A stretch of DNA of 41,031 bases from Candidatus Aquidulcis sp. (GTDB taxonomy: Bacteria; Chloroflexota; Anaerolineae; Anaerolineales; UBA4823), in NCBI GenBank assembly GCA_020723385.1, contig DYIZ01000044.1:1-41031 (forward strand), read 5' to 3'. A program made the translations under genes and the position numbers. Below the pieces are notes generated by a model, which was given only the letters and a program-made list of their open reading frames with translations, was not told where the DNA came from and searched no databases. Positions 1 through 37,167 of the stretch are shown piece after piece (within the stretch, counting starts at the first letter, position 1; each line of letters begins with the position of its first letter).

Positions 1-64
1 CAGCGCCGCGGCGGGGGCCAGGGCGCGGGCGGTCTCGGCGATGGCGGGGTGCAGGTTGAAGGTA

Positions 65-109
65 GCAGGTGGCAGGTTTGCAGGTGGCAGGTTTGCAGGT
101 GGCAGGTTT
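65..109. repeat. Three perfect tandem copies of a 15-bp unit inside the CHAT gene
   Basis: The 15-base unit gcaggtggcaggttt occurs three times without a mismatch (65-79, 80-94, 95-109). The unit is a multiple of three, so the minus-strand gene reads NLPPA three times and keeps its frame. The repeat lies in a proline-rich linker after the NTPase domain and could change copy number by slippage without breaking the frame. Confidence 0.9.
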
Positions 110-526
110 CGAGGGAGGGGGCGGATTTCGAGCAGGCCGCAGGCGGCGAGGGCTTCGATAGCGGCGGGGAGGCCGAGGGCGGGTTCCTGGTGGGCGGCGG
201 CGGCCCAGCGGGGACAGTCGCCCCATTCGGCCCCGGTTCGGGCAGGATTCTCATCCCATTTCTCCTTATCCCCTGCCCCCCGATCCCCTTTTCCCTCCAC
301 ACGCTTCAAAAAATTCTCCCAATTGGCTTCCACGATCTGCGAGTCCAAATCCTCCTGCTCCAACCGCGCCAGGAAATACAACAGCAGGCGGGCGGTGGGG
401 GGCAGGGCGGCCGCCAGGGATGTCGTCCAGCGGGCGAGCACGGCCAGGAAATCGGTTTCGGTGTAGTCGCTTTCGCCGCGGGCGAAGAAATGGGAGACTT
501 TGGCATCGTCCCGACCCCCCACCCGG

Positions 527-548
527 CCTCCCCCCTGAAGGGGGGAGG
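527..548. repeat. GC-rich REP-like palindrome inside the CHAT coding region
   Basis: A perfect 9-bp stem (527-535 with 540-548) closes a TGAA loop and is flanked by a run of C and G bases (514-526). The layout of C/T-rich arm, G/A-rich arm and G-rich tail resembles the palindrome at 2662-2691. It sits in frame within the CHAT protein, in a segment between the NTPase and the C-terminal helical part, which suggests an insertion tolerated by a linker. Confidence 0.6.
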
Positions 549-2262
549 AGTCTGCCAGGCGATGGCGCAGGGCGGCGGGGGCGGCGGCCAGTTTGTCGGC
601 CAGCTCGAGCAGCTTGGGGTGGCCCTGGGCGGCGTCCAGGGCGCGGAACCACAGGTCGCGCGTGGCGGGGTCGGCGGAGAGGGCGCGCAGGTGGGGCAGG
701 CTGCGCCCCAGCAGGGCGCTCTCGCGCCAGCTCAGGGCGTGGAGGGACTGGATGCACAGGCGGGGGTGGTTTTGCAGGGCAGCCGGCAGGCGGCGGCTGG
801 TGAGCACGAGCCGCGACGCCCCGCGCTGCGCCAGGAGCACCTCCTCGATCAGCACACCCCATTTGGGGTCGCGCCACGCACCGCTTTGAGTCAGCAGGCT
901 TTCGGCGTTGTCTATCGCCACCAGAATGGCGCTGCGCTGCAGCACGTCTTTCAGGCGCGGGGCGGTGCGGCGAGCAAATTCTTCGGGGTGGTCAGCGTAT
1001 GCGGTGAGGCCCAGGTCGTGCAGGCTGAGCTGGCGCTCCATTTCGAGCAGGAAATCGGTGAAGACCCGCCCCGGCTCGTAGGATTGGTCTTCGTCGGGAG
1101 CTTTGAACCACACGTAGCCAGTGAAACGGTCACGCTCGTGGCGATAGGCCAGTTCCAGGGCGCAGGCGGTCTTGCCAGCCCCGGCCATGCCGTAGAACAG
1201 CACGCCCGCCAGCCCGCTTTCGGGGGCCAGGGCCTGGCTGGCGCGCAGCATGGGCCGCAGGCGATCCACAAAACGGGGCGGCTCCTCGGGAAAAGCCAGC
1301 CCCAGGCCGGCGGCGGGCAGGGTGTAATCGGGCTGGAGGGCGGGGGGAACGAGTTTCAGGCGCGCGGCGCGCCGCCCGAACAGCAGCGGGGTGATGGCGG
1401 AGGTCTCGGGAGCGATGGAGACGTTTTTCAGCGCCTCGGCCAGCGCCAGTTGCAGCGCGTCGGGCAGAGCGCGTTTCTTGTCCAGCAGGTGGTCGAACAG
1501 GCCGAGCAGCAGGGCGATGGAGAACTCGTCGCCCACGGCGTAGCGCATGGCCAGCACGGCGCAGTCCAGCCCCTCGGCCACCTGCTGCGCCAGGCTGGGG
1601 AACTGCGTGGCAGCCTGCGGCTGGTCGTCGGGCGGGGGCGGGTAGCCTTCGCGGGCGGCTTGGCCGGGTTTGCCGGAGGCGTCTGCGCTGGCGGGGCTGC
1701 CGTTCGCGGCCCGATCCAGCCGGGCGCGCTCGGCGTGCAGCGCATTCAGGCTGGCCGCGCCGGAATAGCACGCCGAAAGCGTGACCAACTGCGGCGGCGG
1801 CGAGGCGGCTTGCAGCATGGCAAGAAAATCGGCGGCGGGCAGGCAGTCGAGCGTACCGTCGTCTTTTTCGAGCACCAGCTCGCCCTCCAGCCCGTGCCCG
1901 GAGAAATGGACGATATCCCAACCTTCGCCGTCTTCGAGGGCTTCTTGCAGCGTCTGGCGGGTTGCGCCGTATTGCAGCGTGCGTATGGTCAGCGCCAGGC
2001 CGCGCGTTTGAGCCAGCCCCTCCAACTGGCATTTGAGCTGGTAACGCTCCTCCCGCAGATTGAGCGGCATGGTGTCGTCGGGCAGGCTGAAGATCGCCAA
2101 CACGCGCAACTGCTGGCGGGCGGCATCCTCCGCCGGGGGCGGGGCGGCGGAGGCGATGGTGTACACGAAGCGCAGCCCTGCCTCGGCGAGCGTCCGCCCA
2201 TCCAGGTGGGCGATCTCGAACGGGCGGAAGAGCAGCCCCTGGGCCGCGGCGGGCAGCACTAC

Positions 2263-2265
2263 CTA
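2263..2265 (-). other. In-frame amber (TAG) codon within the CHAT gene
   Basis: Codon 106 of the CHAT frame is TAG, between VTVV and VVLPAAAQG. The same frame continues for at least 750 more codons that encode recognisable CHAT and NTPase motifs, so the stop is a point event and not the natural end of the gene. A single C-to-T change from CAG would produce it. No other in-frame stop was found in the visible part. Confidence 0.85.
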
Positions 2266-2632
2266 TACCACGGTGACGGGTGGGCGGAGGTGTTTTTTCA
2301 GCGCGGGGCGCAGCCCGCCGAGGATCTTCTCACCGGCCCACTCGCCCAGGGCGTGCATCCACTGGCGGCGGCGCTCCAGGCTGGCCGCGTAGCCATCCCC
2401 GTATTCGAGCGGGGCGTGGTAATCCAGGCGGCCCGGCACATCGAGGAAATCCTGATATTGGGGGTCGGCGGGGTCGAGCGCCACGTCGTGATCGGCCAGC
2501 AGGTTGCGCCGCTCGTCGTACAATACCCAACGCCAGCGCGTTTCGGACTGGTAATCGGTAAGCTCGAGTTGCGGGGTCATGGGAATCTCCTTTATCCGCC
2601 CGTGGAGAGATGCGGGTTGCTGTGCTACACCC

Positions 2633-2638
2633 ATTATA
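2633..2638 (-). promoter_or_regulatory. Possible -10 box of the CHAT gene
   Basis: On the minus strand the sequence reads TATAAT about 55 bases upstream of the CHAT start codon at 2580. No convincing -35 hexamer lies at the expected distance, where the palindromic repeat begins instead. The call rests on the -10 match alone. Confidence 0.35.
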
Positions 2639-2661
2639 TAGCAAATAGGCGGGCAACGCCC

Positions 2662-2691
2662 CCTTTCTCTCCCAGAATTGGGAGAGAAAGG
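2662..2691. repeat. REP-like palindrome between the divergent CHAT and ABC genes
   Basis: A perfect 13-bp stem (2662-2674 with 2679-2691) closes a GAAT loop and is followed by a G-rich tail (2692-2701). It lies in the 261-base divergent intergenic region between the CHAT start (2580) and the ABC ATPase start (2842). The left arm CCTTTCTCTCCC closely resembles a segment inside the ABC gene at 10831-10855, indicating a dispersed repeat family. Confidence 0.7.
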
Positions 2692-2763
2692 TGGTTGGGG
2701 GATAGTGAGGGCAGAAAATGGATTTCACTTGCCAATAATACCTTACAATAACTGTACAATTAC

Positions 2764-3791: not shown

Positions 3792-6700
3792 ATGAATACA
3801 ATCTTCGGCATACCAGCCAATATCCTGCTCTACACCCTGCTCGCCCTTTCCGGGCTGATCGTGCTCGGCGTTGGCGTGACGGCGCTGCGCTTCCCGGTGG
3901 CCTTTCGCCTGGGCATCCGCAACCTGCCCCGCCGCAAATCTCAATCCTTCCTGATCATTTCCGGGCTGGCGCTTTCCACCCTGATCATCACCAGCGCCCT
4001 GGGGATCGGCGACACGGTGGATTACTCGGTCAAATCCGGCGTATATGACAACCTGGGCGGCATAGATATGCAGATCGCCACATCGAAGCTCAAGGCGCAG
4101 TCTAGCTTCAGCTTTGGCAGCGGCGCGCCCGCCACAACCGCCGCCGACAACTGGTTCGATGCCGGCGTTGCCAATGAAGTCGCCGGTCAGGTGGATGGCG
4201 TGACTCTGGATGCCTCGGTCGCCGCGGCGATCCAGACCCTGCCGGTGGTCAACAGCCAGACGAAACTCTCCGAAGCCGCAGTGGAAATCCGCGGCCTGGG
4301 AGGAGCCACCGGAAACGGGCTGCCCTTACCCGAAGGATTGAATTCCCTCGCCGATGGCGAAGTGCTGGTCAACCAGTCGCTGGCAACGGCGCTGGATGCA
4401 TCTATCGGCAACGAACTGATGATCATCAAAGGGATGCCGCAGACGTTCACGGTCGCCGGGATCGTTCCGGACGGTGAATTGGCCGGTTCCAGCCTGGCGG
4501 TGATACTGCCGCTCGAGCGGGCGCAGGTTTTCTTCGGCAAGCCAGGCCAGATTACAGCAGTGTTCGTCTCCAACCAGGGCGATTCCGAAACCGGCGCGGC
4601 CCTGAGCGACAAAGCCGCCAGCCAGCTCGAGCCGATAGCTGGCAGCCTGGTGGTCAACCCGGTCAAAGCCGAACAGCTCGACGCGGCTGCGACCAGCGCC
4701 GAGTTCATCACCACCCTGTTCGTCACCTTCGGCACGTTTTCCATCGTATCCGGCATTCTGCTGATCTTCCTGATCTTCTCAGTGCTGGCTGCGGAACGCA
4801 AATCCGAGATGGGCATGAGCCGGGCGGTGGGACTGCAACGCGCCGATCTGGTGCGGCAGTTCGTCACCGAAGGGCTGGCATACAATCTGTTGGCAGCCGC
4901 GCTCGGCGCTGCCCTGGGGGTTGGCGCGGCGATTTTGCTGGCCTCCGCCATCGCCAGTTTGTTGAGCAGCAGCACGCTGTCCGTCACCCCGCGTGTTTCA
5001 CTGCGCTCGGTGGCGATTGGCTACACCCTGGGGCTGGTCATCTCGTTCGTCACGGTGGTCTTCTCGGCGGTGCGCAACAGCCGGGTGAACATCATCGCCG
5101 CCATCCGCAATCTGAACCTGCCGGTACCGCCGCGCCTGCCGCAGTGGACGCTGTTCCTGCGCCCCTTCACGGTATGGAAAGCGGCCGTCCAAAAAGCAGG
5201 CCAGGGCAACTACGGCGAGGCGCTGCGATTGTTCCTGTTCGCCGGGCCGAAAGCGGTCTTGAGCTTTTGGGGCGGATTGTGGGCACGCGGCCCGGTTCTT
5301 CTGGCGCTCGGTTTCCTGTTCGCCTGGGTGGGCGTCAATGTCGCCAAGCAATCGGGCGTGTATGGCCTGGGGGTCTCGATGTTCCTGATCGGCCTGGGAC
5401 AATTTTTCCAATGGGTGCGCATCCCCTCCCGGTGGGCATATACCTTCACCGGGCTATCGCTCATCCTGTATTGGTCGCTTCCCACGCGTGAAATCGGCAA
5501 ATTGAAAGACCTGGGCAACAATCCCGGCGATTTCTTCATCAGCGGGATGTTCCTGGTGGGCGGAGCGATCTTGCTCTTCCTGTACAACGCCGACACGCTG
5601 CTCAATGTGTTCGCCGCTCTCTTCGGGCGGGCGCGCAGTCTGCTCTCGGTGGCGCGTGTCTCTGTGGCTTACCCGGTATCAGCCAAAGGCCGCACCGCCA
5701 CCACGCTGGCGATGTTCAGCCTGATCATTTTCACGCTGGTCAGCACAGCCACGATCACCAACACGTTTAGCAATTTCCTGGATGTGGAAGGCGGCTCAGG
5801 CGGGTACGAAATTTTGGTGCAGACCAATCCCTTCAACCCGGTTTCCGCCGATAAGTTCACCAGCGGCATTGACCAGCTCGTCGCCGACGGGAAGATCGAG
5901 CAGCCCGCCGCGTTGGCATCGGCGGTGTTCGCTCCGGTCAAGGCGCAAAGCCCGAATATGACCGCCAGCGCCAATTACGCCATCAACGGCGCGGATGCGG
6001 CCTTCTTCGAGACGAACAACCTGGCGCTGAACGGCATCGCCAAAGGCTACACCTCGGCCAGTGAGGTGTGGGCTGCTCTGCAAGCTGACCCCACCCTGAT
6101 CGTTGTGGATGGTTTCTCGGTCGAGCGCTCCGGCGACCCGACCTTCCAGCGGGATGAGAGCGCCTTTTATATCAGCGCCATCCGCGCCAGCGACACCGCC
6201 TTCGACCCGCTCAAAGTTCAAATCACCGGCAAAGATGGCACAGCGCATGAATTCACCGTCATCGGCACACTGGGCAGCGCACCCGCCTTCTATGGCGCGC
6301 TGATGAGCGCTGAAGCCGCCAAATCGCTGGGATATGAGGGGGCGAACCGCTACTTCGTGCGCCTGGAAAGCGGCGCGGACGCACAGATCACCGCCAATGC
6401 GATCAAAAGCACCTTCAGCACCGCCGGTCTGCAGACCTCGCTGTTGAAAGAACAGCTCGAAAAGAGCCGGGCGACGGTGCGCAGTGTGTTCTACCTGATC
6501 CAGGGATTCGTGGGACTTGGCCTGCTGATCGGGATCGCCGCCCTGGGTGTGATCACCATCCGGGCAGTGGTGGAACGCCGCCAGCAGATTGGGGTGCTGC
6601 GAGCGATCGGTTTCCAGCGGGGGATGGTGCAGAGCGTGTTCCTGCTGGAGAGCCTGTTCATCGCCGGGCTGGGCACGGTGATCGGTTACGGCCTGGCGCT

Positions 6701-6881
6701 GACCTTTGCCTATAACCTGTATTTACAGGTTGCCGCCGACCAGGGGCTGGCATTCCTGCCGCCGTGGGTGGTCCTGGCCGGGATTGGCGCAGCGATCTTC
6801 GCCGCCAGCCTGCTGACCGCCTGGCTGCCCTCCCGCTCGACCTCGAAAATTGTCATCGCCGAGGCGCTGCGCTACGAGTAG
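3792..6881 (+). CDS. ABC transporter permease with two FtsX domains
   Basis: This is a 1029-residue membrane protein. I chose the ATG at 3792 because AGAGG precedes it by six bases; an upstream ATG at 3732 would add 20 unlikely residues. The layout is an N-terminal TM pair (about 11-31 and 53-70), a large extracytoplasmic MacB-like region, a first FtsX TM block (about 305-430) with an ERKSEMGMSRAVG coupling segment, a central multi-TM hydrophobic insert (about 500-610), a second extracytoplasmic region, and a final FtsX block (about 895-1025) with ERRQQIGVLRAIG. The duplicated FtsX unit in one chain suggests that one polypeptide supplies both half-transporters. It pairs with the ATPase upstream; the gap of about 170 bases holds alternative hairpins. 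Substrate unknown. Confidence 0.93.
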   Translation: MNTIFGIPANILLYTLLALSGLIVLGVGVTALRFPVAFRLGIRNLPRRKSQSFLIISGLALSTLIITSALGIGDTVDYSVKSGVYDNLGGIDMQIATSKLKAQSSFSFGSGAPATTAADNWFDAGVANEVAGQVDGVTLDASVAAAIQTLPVVNSQTKLSEAAVEIRGLGGATGNGLPLPEGLNSLADGEVLVNQSLATALDASIGNELMIIKGMPQTFTVAGIVPDGELAGSSLAVILPLERAQVFFGKPGQITAVFVSNQGDSETGAALSDKAASQLEPIAGSLVVNPVKAEQLDAAATSAEFITTLFVTFGTFSIVSGILLIFLIFSVLAAERKSEMGMSRAVGLQRADLVRQFVTEGLAYNLLAAALGAALGVGAAILLASAIASLLSSSTLSVTPRVSLRSVAIGYTLGLVISFVTVVFSAVRNSRVNIIAAIRNLNLPVPPRLPQWTLFLRPFTVWKAAVQKAGQGNYGEALRLFLFAGPKAVLSFWGGLWARGPVLLALGFLFAWVGVNVAKQSGVYGLGVSMFLIGLGQFFQWVRIPSRWAYTFTGLSLILYWSLPTREIGKLKDLGNNPGDFFISGMFLVGGAILLFLYNADTLLNVFAALFGRARSLLSVARVSVAYPVSAKGRTATTLAMFSLIIFTLVSTATITNTFSNFLDVEGGSGGYEILVQTNPFNPVSADKFTSGIDQLVADGKIEQPAALASAVFAPVKAQSPNMTASANYAINGADAAFFETNNLALNGIAKGYTSASEVWAALQADPTLIVVDGFSVERSGDPTFQRDESAFYISAIRASDTAFDPLKVQITGKDGTAHEFTVIGTLGSAPAFYGALMSAEAAKSLGYEGANRYFVRLESGADAQITANAIKSTFSTAGLQTSLLKEQLEKSRATVRSVFYLIQGFVGLGLLIGIAALGVITIRAVVERRQQIGVLRAIGFQRGMVQSVFLLESLFIAGLGTVIGYGLALTFAYNLYLQVAADQGLAFLPPWVVLAGIGAAIFAASLLTAWLPSRSTSKIVIAEALRYE

Positions 6882-25510: not shown

Positions 25511-27205
25511 TTATTTCGATGCGCGGTACTTTCGATAGGTGAGCCAATAGATCAGCAAACCAAACGGCCCTAAAAAGATCACCAGCAACGCCCAAAGCAG
25601 CCATTTTCCCCGAGGCGCTCGCGGGCTTCGCTCCAGCAGCCAAATGGTGATAACAAGCGACACGATCGTCACTGTGACCCAAATTGGCTTCAAACGATCA
25701 AAAATCGCCCGACTCCCCCACCCGAAAAGCGGCGGGAGCAAGACAGGGTGATCCTCCAGATATTGATTGGGATCATCCAATGCGGCAGCGTTCTCTTCCA
25801 TGCAAGGGAAGCTTTCAAACCCTTGCAACACCGTTTCAACATAGAAAGCTGAAACATCCACCTGCCAGGCGTTAGCAGCCACATACTCTGCATGGTCGAG
25901 AGCCATCTGATGGGAATATTCCTCGAGGCTGTGGCTGATGTCACCTGCGCCCGGCGCATGAACATCCAGCATCATTACGGGCGCTTGGCAGGAAAAATCG
26001 AGCTGCTCAAAGTCAATCGAGCGGATTTGTGGATTCTGGTTGGTGCGAAAGTGGATCTGCGCGCCGGCGGGATCGAAAACCGCGCTCCACACGGTATCTT
26101 CCACAGACACAGCTTTCAAAGCATCAAAGGCATAAGTGACAGCCGATTCTGAGCTTGTGGGCTCAAACGCTTTGACCCACTGGGCGGCAGTCACAAAACG
26201 GGTCAAAAAATCGCCCGAAAAATTCGGCAGAAAGCCTAAGGCTAGAACCTGAACGGGGACTTCTGGCGGGAGAACGTATTTACTCATATCTTCAGGGAGA
26301 GTCGCCATCTCCAGAACCAGCGTGACAGGGTTAGTCTCGCCTGGGTGAAGCGCGGTGAGACTAACTTCATCGCCTGCGGTATGTTGGGTAAGTACAGAGA
26401 AGAAAGTGTCTATGGACTGCTCACCCACCAACGCAACCCCATCAATGGCCGTGATCCAATCTTTCTCCCTGATCCCCGCTTTTGCCGCAGGGCCGTCCGG
26501 GGATACGCCGATAGCTTCCACCTTCCAATAGATCCCGGTTTCAAGAGCCGTCAGCGCGTCCTGGTAAGAGCTATTAGCCAGCGCCTTCACTGGGAGGGAA
26601 GCCCCAGCATAAACAACCATCTTGCCATTCAAAAATTCGATGATGGCGCACTCCCCTGTCCGATCACAAACCAGGTAATGGTCATATTCCATCGTACTTC
26701 GTGCGATTGCATCACTGGCAATCACCTCATCAATGGTGCTGTGATTATCGAGTTGATATTGAATCCAGAAGGGTGACCAGAGCGGCGGCCGCGCATCAGG
26801 AGCCTGGGCGACGGTATCGAGCAGAGACATAGTGCTGATCATCAAACCGGCCTCGTTCATACCTCCCCAAACCAATTGATACGCCGCGGCATTGAAGGTA
26901 ACGCTGCCGTATTTAGATATCCAGCGGGCATATTTACCAGAAGTGCTCGGTTCCCAGGCGGTCTTCAAAACATGCCGCTTGTTGACAAATGCCTGCCCAA
27001 CTTGCAGCGTTCCATGATCCATATTGGTCCCGAACACACAATGGTCACCATTGTCGAGGCAAAACGAGGTACACGCGCCACCTGAGGCTTCCAGGGCAAT
27101 CTGCTTGTCTACCAGAATAGATGTTGGCTCTGTATGGGGATATCCACAATTCATCATAACAATGGAGAGTGCCAGATATATTCCAAACAGCCGCTGTGTG
27201 TTCAT
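25511..27205 (-). CDS. Ntn-type linear amide hydrolase (C45/C59-like) with inserted PDZ domain and TM tail
   Basis: The protein has 564 residues from ATG 27205, five bases after the previous stop, with GGAG nine bases upstream. After a signal-like segment, the probable nucleophile Cys 45 lies in GACTSFCL, followed by VFGTNMDHG (58-66), the pattern of choloylglycine hydrolase / penicillin acylase-type enzymes. A PDZ-like domain (about 224-300, with GPAAKAGIREKDWITAIDG) interrupts this fold, and typical hydrolase sequence resumes afterward (AVTYAFDALKAV, SIDFEQLDFSC). Two TM helices end the protein (about 508-526 and 535-555). The enzyme would cleave amide bonds in an extracytoplasmic setting, with the PDZ perhaps recruiting a partner. 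Substrate unknown. Confidence 0.8.
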   Translation of the reverse strand: MNTQRLFGIYLALSIVMMNCGYPHTEPTSILVDKQIALEASGGACTSFCLDNGDHCVFGTNMDHGTLQVGQAFVNKRHVLKTAWEPSTSGKYARWISKYGSVTFNAAAYQLVWGGMNEAGLMISTMSLLDTVAQAPDARPPLWSPFWIQYQLDNHSTIDEVIASDAIARSTMEYDHYLVCDRTGECAIIEFLNGKMVVYAGASLPVKALANSSYQDALTALETGIYWKVEAIGVSPDGPAAKAGIREKDWITAIDGVALVGEQSIDTFFSVLTQHTAGDEVSLTALHPGETNPVTLVLEMATLPEDMSKYVLPPEVPVQVLALGFLPNFSGDFLTRFVTAAQWVKAFEPTSSESAVTYAFDALKAVSVEDTVWSAVFDPAGAQIHFRTNQNPQIRSIDFEQLDFSCQAPVMMLDVHAPGAGDISHSLEEYSHQMALDHAEYVAANAWQVDVSAFYVETVLQGFESFPCMEENAAALDDPNQYLEDHPVLLPPLFGWGSRAIFDRLKPIWVTVTIVSLVITIWLLERSPRAPRGKWLLWALLVIFLGPFGLLIYWLTYRKYRASK

Positions 27206-27210
27206 TTTTC

Positions 27211-29379
27211 TCACTCCAAAGGCTTGTCCTTTAGATAATCCAGCACAAGAATACACCCATTGTCGGAATTCGAAAGAACAATGACGGTATATCCGGTGTC
27301 GGGGTACATATTCAGGGATGAGCAAACTCCCGGAGCGCCGCCGCCGTGTCCTACCACGCGTTGCCCAGCAACCACCCGATCGAAGAAACCATAGGCATAG
27401 TTGGAATTTTCTCGGACAACGACTTTTCCAGTTAAGAGCAGCTCGGTTGATTCCGGGTTTAAAAGCTCGAAGCTCAATAAAGCATTACGGAAATTCAACA
27501 GGTCTTCCACGGTTGAGTAGCCGCCGCCGGCAGCAAAGCCCTCTCCAGGCATCAAAGCCGTGTTGCTGGTCAGGATGCCGGTCTCATTGCCCCAGATATT
27601 CCGGGTGGTGTAGCCCACAGCCAGGTTAGGCGTGTCGGCATCTATTTCGAACGCGCCGGTATTGACCATGCCGCTCGGGTCATAAATGTTTTGCTGGATA
27701 TATTCGTCATAACTCTGTCCTGAAACCCGTTCGATGATCAAGCCCAGCACAACGTAGCCGGCATTGCTGTATGAAAACTGCTCGCCGGGCTGGAATTGCA
27801 GCGGCTCGTTCACGAACAGCGGCAAAAAATCTGCGTTCGACCTGTATTGATGGGGGTTGGCGCTGAACTCTTCTGTGAACACATCCCCCAACCCCGATGT
27901 ATGGGTCAGGAGCTGGTGGATGGTAACTACGGTAGCGACCTCAGTATTTGGGTAGTCTGGGATATGCTGAATAATGGTGTCCTCGAGGGACAGTTTGTCG
28001 GATTCCATCAGTTGCAGAATGGCGACCGCCGTGAACATTTTGTTCATCGAACCCAGGTTGAATTTGGTATCAATCTGGTTGGGAATAGCCAGAGATTGAT
28101 CTGCCAGCCCATAGGCTTCTTCCAGGCGTATCTCACTCTCTTGGGCAATCAGCACCGCGCCAGAGAATTGGTCATTCGAGACCAATTCTTCCAGATAAGC
28201 CACAAAATCCGTAAACCAGGTCACGGATGGCTCTGCAGTCAATATCGGTGTGGCTGCAACGACGGGTGTTTCGACAGAAGTAATGCGCCATAACAATACT
28301 TCGCCGCGTTCGCCGCCGGAGGCGAATACTCGATCTACGGGCGAAAAAGCCACCGAGAAGATTTCTCCTTTGTGACCTTGTAAAGCGACCAACAGTTGAC
28401 CACTGGCTACATCCCACAACCGCACCAAACCATCAATACCACCGGAAACTAATAAACTGCTATCAGGTGAAAAATCAACAGCGCTCATTTTAAATTCATC
28501 AGCGACCAGGGTATACCTTAACTCGCCACTGCCGGCATCCCAAACCCGGATGGTTCGATCTCCGCTGGCTGAGGCAAGGGAGGCGCCGTCCGGTGAATAA
28601 GCAACTCGATAAACATTTGCTGTGTGACCGCCCAGTTTATGGAGCAGCTCCCCGCTGGACACTTCCCAGATGAGCACGCGAAAATCGGCTCCGCCGCCCC
28701 CTGATGCGATTCGACTGCCATCCGGAGAGAACGCTACGGAGCAGGATAACTCTTCCAGGCCGCGCAGTTCTCGCACCGGCTCTCCACTCCCCACATCCCA
28801 TAGCCGCACGATGCCATCTACATGGCCGGAGGCCATCATCGTACCATCTGGAGAGAATTCTACACCGCAAGCATCAAGCCCAGGATCATCTATCCGGCGG
28901 CTCACCTGCCTGCTGGATAGATCCCAGAATGCAATGGTCGCATCTTGCTCGATGGCGGCCAATAGTTGACCATCTGGTGAAAAATCTAAACCGCTCATGT
29001 AACCGGCGCCGCCTTGAAAAACTTGCATCATTTGGCCGGTGGCAACATCCCACAACCGGATAGTTCCATCATCCCCAGTGGAAGCCAGGAGACTCCCATC
29101 CGGTGAAAAATCGAGACTGCCCACGCCGCTGCTTTGACCAATCAGCGCCTGCGGGGTTGAGACTTCCACTCTGACGCCAACCGGTGTAAGGGTTGGCGTT
29201 ACGGGTGATGGCGTTTGGGCCAGGGGAATTGGCGTTGCCGTCGAGAGAGTGAAATCAGGCAGCCTGGGGGTGCTGGAAATGGTTGGGGGAGGCGCTGTAA
29301 CCGCGGCGGTTGCAGCCGGTCTACAACCAATCAGGATGAATAGAAGACATCCAGCTAAAGCGATAATTTTCGTTCTCAT
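27211..29379 (-). CDS. WD40 propeller fused to a serine beta-lactamase-fold domain, lipoprotein
   Basis: The 722-residue protein starts with a signal peptide and lipobox LIGC (Cys 19), then a Thr/Pro-rich linker (about 22-70), then seven WD40 repeats (about 85-370, each with FSPDG and a W-D or W-E end). These would make one full propeller. A beta-lactamase-fold domain follows, with S444-M-N-K447, Y537-S-N539 and GHGGGAPG. Bacterial WD40 proteins act as scaffolds; the fold's enzymes cleave esters or peptides. Joining both in one outer-surface protein is unusual. The ATG at 29379 has AGGTGA five bases upstream. Its stop lies five bases before the next gene, so they form an operon. Confidence 0.85.
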   Translation of the reverse strand: MRTKIIALAGCLLFILIGCRPAATAAVTAPPPTISSTPRLPDFTLSTATPIPLAQTPSPVTPTLTPVGVRVEVSTPQALIGQSSGVGSLDFSPDGSLLASTGDDGTIRLWDVATGQMMQVFQGGAGYMSGLDFSPDGQLLAAIEQDATIAFWDLSSRQVSRRIDDPGLDACGVEFSPDGTMMASGHVDGIVRLWDVGSGEPVRELRGLEELSCSVAFSPDGSRIASGGGGADFRVLIWEVSSGELLHKLGGHTANVYRVAYSPDGASLASASGDRTIRVWDAGSGELRYTLVADEFKMSAVDFSPDSSLLVSGGIDGLVRLWDVASGQLLVALQGHKGEIFSVAFSPVDRVFASGGERGEVLLWRITSVETPVVAATPILTAEPSVTWFTDFVAYLEELVSNDQFSGAVLIAQESEIRLEEAYGLADQSLAIPNQIDTKFNLGSMNKMFTAVAILQLMESDKLSLEDTIIQHIPDYPNTEVATVVTIHQLLTHTSGLGDVFTEEFSANPHQYRSNADFLPLFVNEPLQFQPGEQFSYSNAGYVVLGLIIERVSGQSYDEYIQQNIYDPSGMVNTGAFEIDADTPNLAVGYTTRNIWGNETGILTSNTALMPGEGFAAGGGYSTVEDLLNFRNALLSFELLNPESTELLLTGKVVVRENSNYAYGFFDRVVAGQRVVGHGGGAPGVCSSLNMYPDTGYTVIVLSNSDNGCILVLDYLKDKPLE

Positions 29380-35974: not shown

Positions 35975-37123
35975 CTATCTTATGGCCCACACCTGCACCC
36001 CTTCTCCCCAAACGGAAAAGGCGATCAGGGTGCCATCCGGTGAAAAAGCCACCGCCCCGTGTTCCTGGTTTGGAACCCGGATCGTCTTTACGGCATCACC
36101 CGTTTCCATATTCCACACTTGCAACGCCTCGTGAACCGACGCTAACAAGCTGCCGTCTGGTGAGAAGGCAATTTGATATGCCGCCTGGCTGTTCTCTGGG
36201 AAATCTCTGATGATCTGGCTGCTGGCCAAATCCCATACCCTGACACCAATAGGATCGCCAAGCTCATTTGTAGCCATTACCAATTTTGTCCCATCTGGTG
36301 TGAACAAGATGTCATGGTAATCTATCCGCACCGAGACGTGAGTGAACGTGCTGGTTTCTTGCCAGGTGGCGGTATCCCAAAGTTTAATTACGTTCCCAGG
36401 CCGCTCATAACTAACCAATAGTGTATTTCCCTCGGGAGAGAAGACGAGATTGAAGATGTATTCGTAGTCGCTAACCAGGTTTGCCACCGGCTGGTAGGTT
36501 TCCAGGTCGATGATGACCACATTATTTGGCAAACCGGCCATGGCCAAAAGCCTGCCATCCGGGGAGATCGCCATAGCCCAGACACGCGATCTAAACGAAT
36601 AGGTAAACATTACCCGGCCAGTGAGATCGTATCCGGTCACCGCGCCATGGTCGCCGTAAGCGTTGACAATCATGCTCCCGTCCAGCGAAAGCGCCAGGGT
36701 GCCCCAGTACCAAATCCCTGCCGCCTCGTCTGTTGCATAGGTGCTCTGGGCTGGCAGAAAGACAGTTTTCTCCCAGGTATCGCGCTCCCAAACCAGCACC
36801 TCTCCGTTTCGGTCGCCGGTGATCATGGTTTGGCTGTCTGGTGTGAAAGCAATGGTATTGACGAACGAATCGGGCAAGTTCAAATCCATAACCTTTGCCA
36901 GCCGGGCTATCGTCTCGGTGTTAATGACCTGACTGAGGATAACTACCGTTGCCGAGGGCGCTATTGTTGCGGACGGTGATGAAGGCATGGCAGTCGCTGT
37001 GGGAGGCGCCGATGTCATGATCGGCGTAGGTATAACGGCAGTCATGGAAGGAACCGGCGTCGCGGCTGGGCTGCACGCGACAATCAAGGTGGACAGGACA
37101 ATCAAGACAAGAAACTTGTACAT
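35975..37123 (-). CDS. WD40 repeat lipoprotein
   Basis: The protein has 382 residues from ATG 37123 (GGAG eight bases upstream), with lipobox LIVAC (Cys 17) and a Thr/Pro/Ser-rich linker (about 20-60). Seven repeats with F/S-x-DG and W/Y-D/E endings follow (examples FTPDSQTMITGD, FSPEGNTLLVSY, FSPDGTLIAFSV), enough for one seven-bladed propeller. The earlier ATG at 37147 gives eight extra residues and is less favoured. Such propellers bind proteins and need no catalytic site. No enzyme domain is attached, in contrast to the protein at 27211. Confidence 0.87.
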   Translation of the reverse strand: MYKFLVLIVLSTLIVACSPAATPVPSMTAVIPTPIMTSAPPTATAMPSSPSATIAPSATVVILSQVINTETIARLAKVMDLNLPDSFVNTIAFTPDSQTMITGDRNGEVLVWERDTWEKTVFLPAQSTYATDEAAGIWYWGTLALSLDGSMIVNAYGDHGAVTGYDLTGRVMFTYSFRSRVWAMAISPDGRLLAMAGLPNNVVIIDLETYQPVANLVSDYEYIFNLVFSPEGNTLLVSYERPGNVIKLWDTATWQETSTFTHVSVRIDYHDILFTPDGTKLVMATNELGDPIGVRVWDLASSQIIRDFPENSQAAYQIAFSPDGSLLASVHEALQVWNMETGDAVKTIRVPNQEHGAVAFSPDGTLIAFSVWGEGVQVWAIR

Positions 37124-37167
37124 GGATTTTCTCCACAGGTTCGCCATGCATTTTTTTAGTGAGTTAC

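What the first reader, a model, noticed from the sequence alone, without database searches (positions are those of the whole stretch)
1..2580. CHAT-STAND protein gene with one in-frame amber codon
The frame carries the CHAT His-Cys dyad and NTPase motifs over at least 860 codons, broken only by TAG at codon 106. CHAT proteases coupled to STAND NTPases are known or suspected immune and cell-death effectors. A single stop with an intact downstream frame suggests recent inactivation, readthrough or phase variation of a toxic enzyme.
Basis: partly seen in the sequence, partly recalled or inferred. Interest (0 to 1): 0.65.

Follow-up and report, generated by a model that had tools for sequence, protein, structure and literature searches.

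The report
Nonsense-interrupted CHAT-STAND-TPR protease gene
This is a single rare gene for a caspase-like, immune-receptor-like bacterial protein whose reading frame is cut once by an ordinary stop codon near its start, most likely a recently broken copy (or an assembly error), and nothing found suggests a special decoding trick.

Summary
On the minus strand, 2580 to 1, there is one frame with a single TAG (2265-2263, codon 106). Window position 1 is a contig end, and the last 55 bases of another contig of the same genome (C52) equal window 1-55. There the frame runs on to a TAA, giving about 1462 codons with no other stop.

It encodes an N-terminal beta/helical region, a CHAT protease with an intact His-Cys dyad (H229/C271), an NB-ARC-like STAND NTPase and a TPR-like C-terminus. 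The only close relatives found are two tandem genes in one Acidobacteriota genome (about 40% identity; one full length, one truncated). Both keep the N-terminus, so homologs do not start downstream of the TAG.

TAG is a normal stop in this genome, and none of 41 tRNAs found has a CUA anticodon. There is no repeat at the TAG and no defence neighbourhood. Most likely it is a recent nonsense allele of a rare CHAT-STAND-TPR gene. A consensus error remains possible because reads were not available. Readthrough and phase variation have no support. Reinitiation at a GTG three bases downstream is not excluded, but unlikely. The case is ordinary and the interest low.

The parts
1..2580 (-). 5' part (codons 1-860) of a CHAT-STAND-TPR gene; it continues for 602 codons in contig C52 of the same genome to a TAA at C52:11391-11393
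2263..2265 (-). in-frame TAG, codon 106, inside a predicted beta strand (residues 103-109) N-terminal to the caspase core
2587..2593 (-). AAAGGAG, a Shine-Dalgarno-like site 6 nt before the ATG at 2580; initiation signal looks intact
   Evidence: sequence
2266..2580 (-). codons 1-105: N-terminal region (beta strands, two helices) conserved in both relatives; no Pfam match
2257..2259 (-). GTG codon 108, first possible in-frame restart after the TAG (gives a 753-codon open frame to the window end)
1750..2310 (-). CHAT domain match (PF12770), running across the TAG
1894..1896 (-). catalytic His (H229 in HFSGHG)
1768..1770 (-). catalytic Cys (C271 in TLSAC)
1168..1191 (-). P-loop GMAGAGKT (Walker A) of the STAND NTPase
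907..930 (-). Walker B region AILVAIDN
793..801 (-). TSR (sensor-1 / RNBS-B-like)
616..624 (-). GHP (GxP motif of NB-ARC-type STAND NTPases)
50..109 (-). 15-bp tandem repeat, about 4 copies, read in frame as (NLPPA)n; similar DNA at 5 other places in the genome

Best explanation
An ordinary nonsense-interrupted copy of a rare, sporadically distributed CHAT-STAND-TPR gene. The intact protein would work like other STAND effectors: the TPR-like C-terminus senses a trigger, the NB-ARC-like NTPase switches and oligomerises, and the N-terminal CHAT protease is activated to cut a cellular target, probably for defence or cell death (inferred from family knowledge, not shown). In this genome the ribosome would start normally at ATG 2580 and stop at codon 106, before the catalytic core. 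The copy would then make only a 105-residue fragment and be inactive. The otherwise intact frame points to a recent event, probably one allele in the population.
For: There is one stop in about 1462 codons across two contigs. The colinear intact relative of 1272 aa in a Bryobacterales genome matches both parts, at 38% over codons 4-754 and 41% over the C52 part. Dyad, P-loop, Walker B, TSR and GHP are all kept. Both relatives carry residues homologous to codons 1-105, and the predicted strand 103-109 contains codon 106. TAG ends two other window genes, one directly after a complete FtsX domain. Of 41 tRNAs none has anticodon CTA. The five other CHAT genes of this genome have no stop in the match. 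[quoted passage not shown]
Against: No reads and no second genome of the species were available, so the TAG itself is unverified. No other decay (frameshift, deletion) is present, which also fits an error in the consensus or a still-functional gene. Both valine codons flanking the TAG are GTA, which is rare in this gene (3 of 32 Val codons; 10% in window genes). This is unexplained, though it may be chance (about 1%).
Confidence: 0.62

Rival explanations
1. Consensus or strain-mixture error in a metagenome-type draft assembly; the gene is intact in the organism.
For: The draft has 239 contigs and 4.5% contamination. The gene straddles a contig break with a 55-base overlap. It is a single-base-scale defect in an otherwise perfect frame. 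Rare GTA codons sit on both sides of the TAG.
Against: Nothing else in the 1462 codons looks erroneous. No second allele of the gene is in the assembly. None of 18 other window ORFs checked contains an in-frame stop, but these were chosen as open frames, so this says little.
Confidence: 0.27
2. The TAG is a regulatory break: a termination-reinitiation unit in which ribosomes restart at GTG 108 three bases after the TAG, or occasional readthrough, gives a low dose of the protease or a separate N-terminal fragment and catalytic core.
For: GTG 2259-2257 opens the rest of the frame. The caspase-like core starts near residue 156 in the model, so a protein from codon 108 would keep the whole core, NTPase and TPR. 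Bacterial in-frame stops with signs of purifying selection are described (PMC7918605).
Against: There is no Shine-Dalgarno-like site at a workable distance before GTG 108 (sequence). No CUA tRNA was found. The stop is not conserved in either relative. The CHAT-family match and a predicted strand are cut.
Confidence: 0.08
3. TAG is reassigned to an amino acid in this organism.
For: The frame is open except for TAG.
Against: TAG ends window genes 3792-6881 (right after the complete FtsX domain) and 35978-37147. No CTA anticodon was found among 41 tRNAs. No other window gene checked has an internal TAG.
Confidence: 0.01
4. Phase variation of a toxic enzyme.
Against: There is no homopolymer or short tandem repeat at the TAG. 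The main tandem repeat in the gene is at 50-109, has a 15-bp unit and keeps the frame. A substitution-type stop is not a known phase-variation switch.
Confidence: 0.02

Closest known systems
CHAT-STAND conflict proteins of multicellular bacteria (caspase-superfamily or CHAT peptidase with STAND NTPase and repeat sensor; conflict systems described in PMC7159879, PMC8195603, PMC10907252)
   Same: Effector peptidase at the N-terminus, STAND-type NTPase in the middle, superstructure-forming repeats at the C-terminus; occurs in a Chloroflexota-like genome
   Different: Gene stands alone without the partner genes of the ternary systems; a conserved N-terminal region of about 100 residues precedes the caspase core; very rare in the genomes searched; this copy carries a stop
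TPR-CHAT (Csx29) of Craspase
   Same: CHAT protease with TPR in one protein; CHAT fold match
   Different: TPR precedes CHAT there, there is no NTPase, and it is tied to type III-E CRISPR; here the order is CHAT-NTPase-TPR, and no CRISPR gene was recognised among the ORFs scanned next to it
SAVED-CHAT protease
   Same: Best structural match of the catalytic region: 8tl0, Z 15.7, 179 residues, 2.9 A
   Different: Activated by a cyclic-nucleotide sensor (SAVED), not by a STAND NTPase
Bryobacterales MAG palsa_130 tandem genes (L047)
   Same: Same architecture and order for the full-length copy, about 40% identity
   Different: The full-length copy has no stop; the second copy ends after the NTPase

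Membership tests
CHAT protease (PF12770) | Profile match over curated cut-off | tested here: met
   41 bits vs 24; 40.1 bits in whole-genome search
CHAT protease (PF12770) | His-Cys catalytic dyad | tested here: met
   H229 (SGHG) and C271 (SAC), invariant in the three sequences
CHAT protease (PF12770) | Caspase/CHAT fold | tested here: met
   Low-confidence model (pLDDT 57) still matches SAVED-CHAT, TPR-CHAT, separase and caspases
CHAT protease (PF12770) | Proteolytic activity | not testable with these tools
   Needs expression of an intact relative
STAND NTPase (NB-ARC/AP-ATPase type) | Curated profile match | tested here: not met
   NB-ARC 13.6 bits vs 23.5 for the window protein; relatives 22.2 vs 23.5 (NB-ARC) and 22.4 vs 26.7 (NACHT), just below
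STAND NTPase (NB-ARC/AP-ATPase type) | Ordered motifs: RFVxR, P-loop, Walker B, T/S-x-R, GxP | tested here: met
   RFVDR, GMAGAGKT, VAIDN, TSR, GHP in order, conserved with both relatives apart from RFVDR (RFVGR in both) and GHP (GNP in the second copy)
STAND NTPase (NB-ARC/AP-ATPase type) | Fold | tested here: inconclusive
   Low-confidence model (pLDDT 57); top Foldseek hits include a wheat NLR resistosome, Apaf-1, CED-4 and WRR4A among general AAA+ proteins
TPR sensor C-terminus | Profile match over cut-off | tested here: inconclusive
   Window/C52 part TPR_10 14.2 vs 27.5 bits; the relative reaches TPR_19 25.0 vs 25.0
Anti-phage defence system | PADLOC match or defence neighbours | tested here: not met
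   No PADLOC match for the protein. Neighbours are ABC transporter/FtsX, GNAT, APH, beta-lactamase-like and arginase genes; one weak partial HEAT-ARM match 27 kb away
Programmed stop-codon readthrough / recoding | Suppressor tRNA or conserved stop | tested here: not met
   No CTA anticodon in the 41 tRNAs found (the set lacks e.g. tRNA-Asp, so it is not complete); stop absent in both relatives

The most novel reading that the evidence does not exclude
The TAG-GTA-GTG junction is a functional split: ribosomes end the conserved N-terminal region at codon 105 and restart at GTG 108. A separate regulatory fragment and a catalytic CHAT-STAND-TPR protein would then be made from one gene in fixed ratio.
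Probability: 0.04. Interest if true: 0.5.

Novelty: new member of a known kind. Interest (0 to 1): 0.18.

Why it matters
It adds a rare CHAT-STAND-TPR architecture, shared across phyla by this genome and an Acidobacteriota genome, to the caspase-like conflict proteins. The stop itself matters little: a potentially self-harmful effector gene found broken in one genome fits gain-and-loss turnover of such genes, which is expected.

Tried and rejected
(1) Alternative code: rejected, TAG ends other genes. (2) Suppressor tRNA: 41 tRNAs scanned, none CTA. (3) Homologs starting downstream: rejected, both relatives have the N-terminus. (4) Residue at codon 106: alignment gives Arg, Gln or Ile depending on gaps, and setting TAG to Gln biases the alignment toward Gln, so it is not used. 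(5) More relatives: none in 61 relatives at full length, none besides the own gene in 400 genomes of the same phylum at E 1e-20, no closer one in 297 genomes of the Acidobacteriota phylum, none confirmed in viral contigs, none in plasmids with the window protein. (6) Phase-variation repeat at the TAG: none. (7) Dispersed palindromic element at 501-575: only itself found in the genome; a degenerate palindrome search did not match it either, because the spacer was set wrongly, so this stays open. (9) Pfam CHAT did not come up when the protein was cut at the TAG, though it does with the 300-residue N-terminal piece; I read this as the filter plus loss of the N-terminal part and draw no conclusion. 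(10) Solved structures by sequence: no real relative.

Full report
Observation. Window 2580 to 1, minus strand, reads as one frame from an ATG with AAAGGAG six bases upstream. It has exactly one stop, TAG at 2265-2263, codon 106. Sequences of the same dinucleotide make-up have 16 stops on average and never fewer than 5 in 500 trials. Codon usage is gene-like on both sides of the TAG. The plus strand is stop-free for 916 codons, but the protein homology lies on the minus strand.

The gene is longer than the window. Window 1 is the first base of contig C143, and its first 55 bases equal the last 55 bases of contig C52, a typical k-mer overlap. Read separately, the C52 piece continues the frame for 602 further codons to a TAA at C52:11391-11393, with no stop. 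That makes about 1462 codons in all. The break lies next to a 15-bp tandem repeat at 50-109 whose DNA recurs at five other places in the genome, which may be why the assembly stopped there (inference).

Domains. CHAT is confirmed over its curated cut-off, with dyad H229/C271. A fold of residues 1-430 (low confidence, pLDDT 57) matches SAVED-CHAT (Z 15.7 over 179 residues), TPR-CHAT, separase and caspases. The NTPase falls just under the Pfam cut-offs but shows the ordered STAND motifs RFVDR, GMAGAGKT, VAIDN, TSR and GHP. Its model finds Apaf-1, CED-4 and plant NLRs among the best hits. The C-terminal part is TPR-like.

Relatives. One scan of 84,980 genomes gave one locus: two tandem genes in a Bryobacterales MAG. 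The first, 1272 aa, has no stop and is colinear with both parts, at 38% identity over codons 4-754 and 41% over the C52 part. The second ends after the NTPase and is followed by unrelated sequence. Residues before codon 106 are well conserved in both (for example W16, W18, D30, G79, E80, W81), so the true start is upstream of the TAG. Sampling of 400 genomes of the window's own phylum and 297 of the Acidobacteriota found no other close copy. The gene is rare and patchy, consistent with horizontal spread (inference).

What the TAG does. It lies in a predicted strand (residues 103-109) that precedes the caspase core (model residues from about 156) but is inside the CHAT family match. TAG is a normal stop here: the permease gene 3792-6881 ends with it right after a complete FtsX domain. 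No amber-reading tRNA was found among 41, although that set is incomplete (for example no tRNA-Asp). No slipped-strand repeat is near. The simplest reading is therefore termination at codon 106 and an inactive copy. The intact remainder of the frame says that the event is recent or is an error. [quoted passage not shown]

What cannot be decided. Reads were not available, so a consensus error or strain mixture remains at about one in four. The two rare GTA codons flanking the TAG are unexplained. The ancestral residue at codon 106 cannot be inferred from relatives at 40% identity with a gap in this loop. A restart at GTG 108 would leave the catalytic core, NTPase and TPR whole; nothing supports it beyond position.

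Context. Neighbours are a MacB/FtsX-type ABC transporter upstream and an arginase-family gene downstream in C52. PADLOC finds nothing for the protein itself. Five further CHAT genes in the same genome have no stop in the match. Function in defence or cell death is inferred from the architecture (PMC7159879, PMC8195603, PMC10907252), not shown.

Verdict: a real observation, correctly identified in outline, and ordinary in nature.

Noticed in passing
window 27214-29379 (-): WD40 beta-propeller repeats fused to a serine beta-lactamase-like domain in one 722-aa protein.
   Followed up: no
window 25514-27325 (-): Choloylglycine-hydrolase-like domain fused to a PDZ domain.
   Followed up: no
window 50-109: 15-bp in-frame tandem repeat (NLPPA)n inside the gene; similar DNA at 5 other places in the genome (C46 twice, C117, C50, C37).
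   Followed up: partly
window 501-575 and 235-300: Two short in-frame insertions relative to the relatives' protein (SPLQGGGRVGG and EGKGDRGAGDKEKWDENPAR) that look like dispersed non-coding repeats absorbed into the frame; a genome search for 501-575 found only itself.
   Followed up: partly
L016 (G000:C141:16000-22000): Two adjacent CHAT genes (712 and 694 codons) in tandem; the genome holds six CHAT genes in all.
   Followed up: no
L047:4439-6688: Second tandem copy in the Bryobacterales genome is cut off after the NTPase, followed by unrelated sequence that looks like a dispersed repeat.
   Followed up: partly
window 1-2751 (+): 916-codon stop-free frame antisense to the gene, taken as a high-GC shadow.
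   Followed up: no
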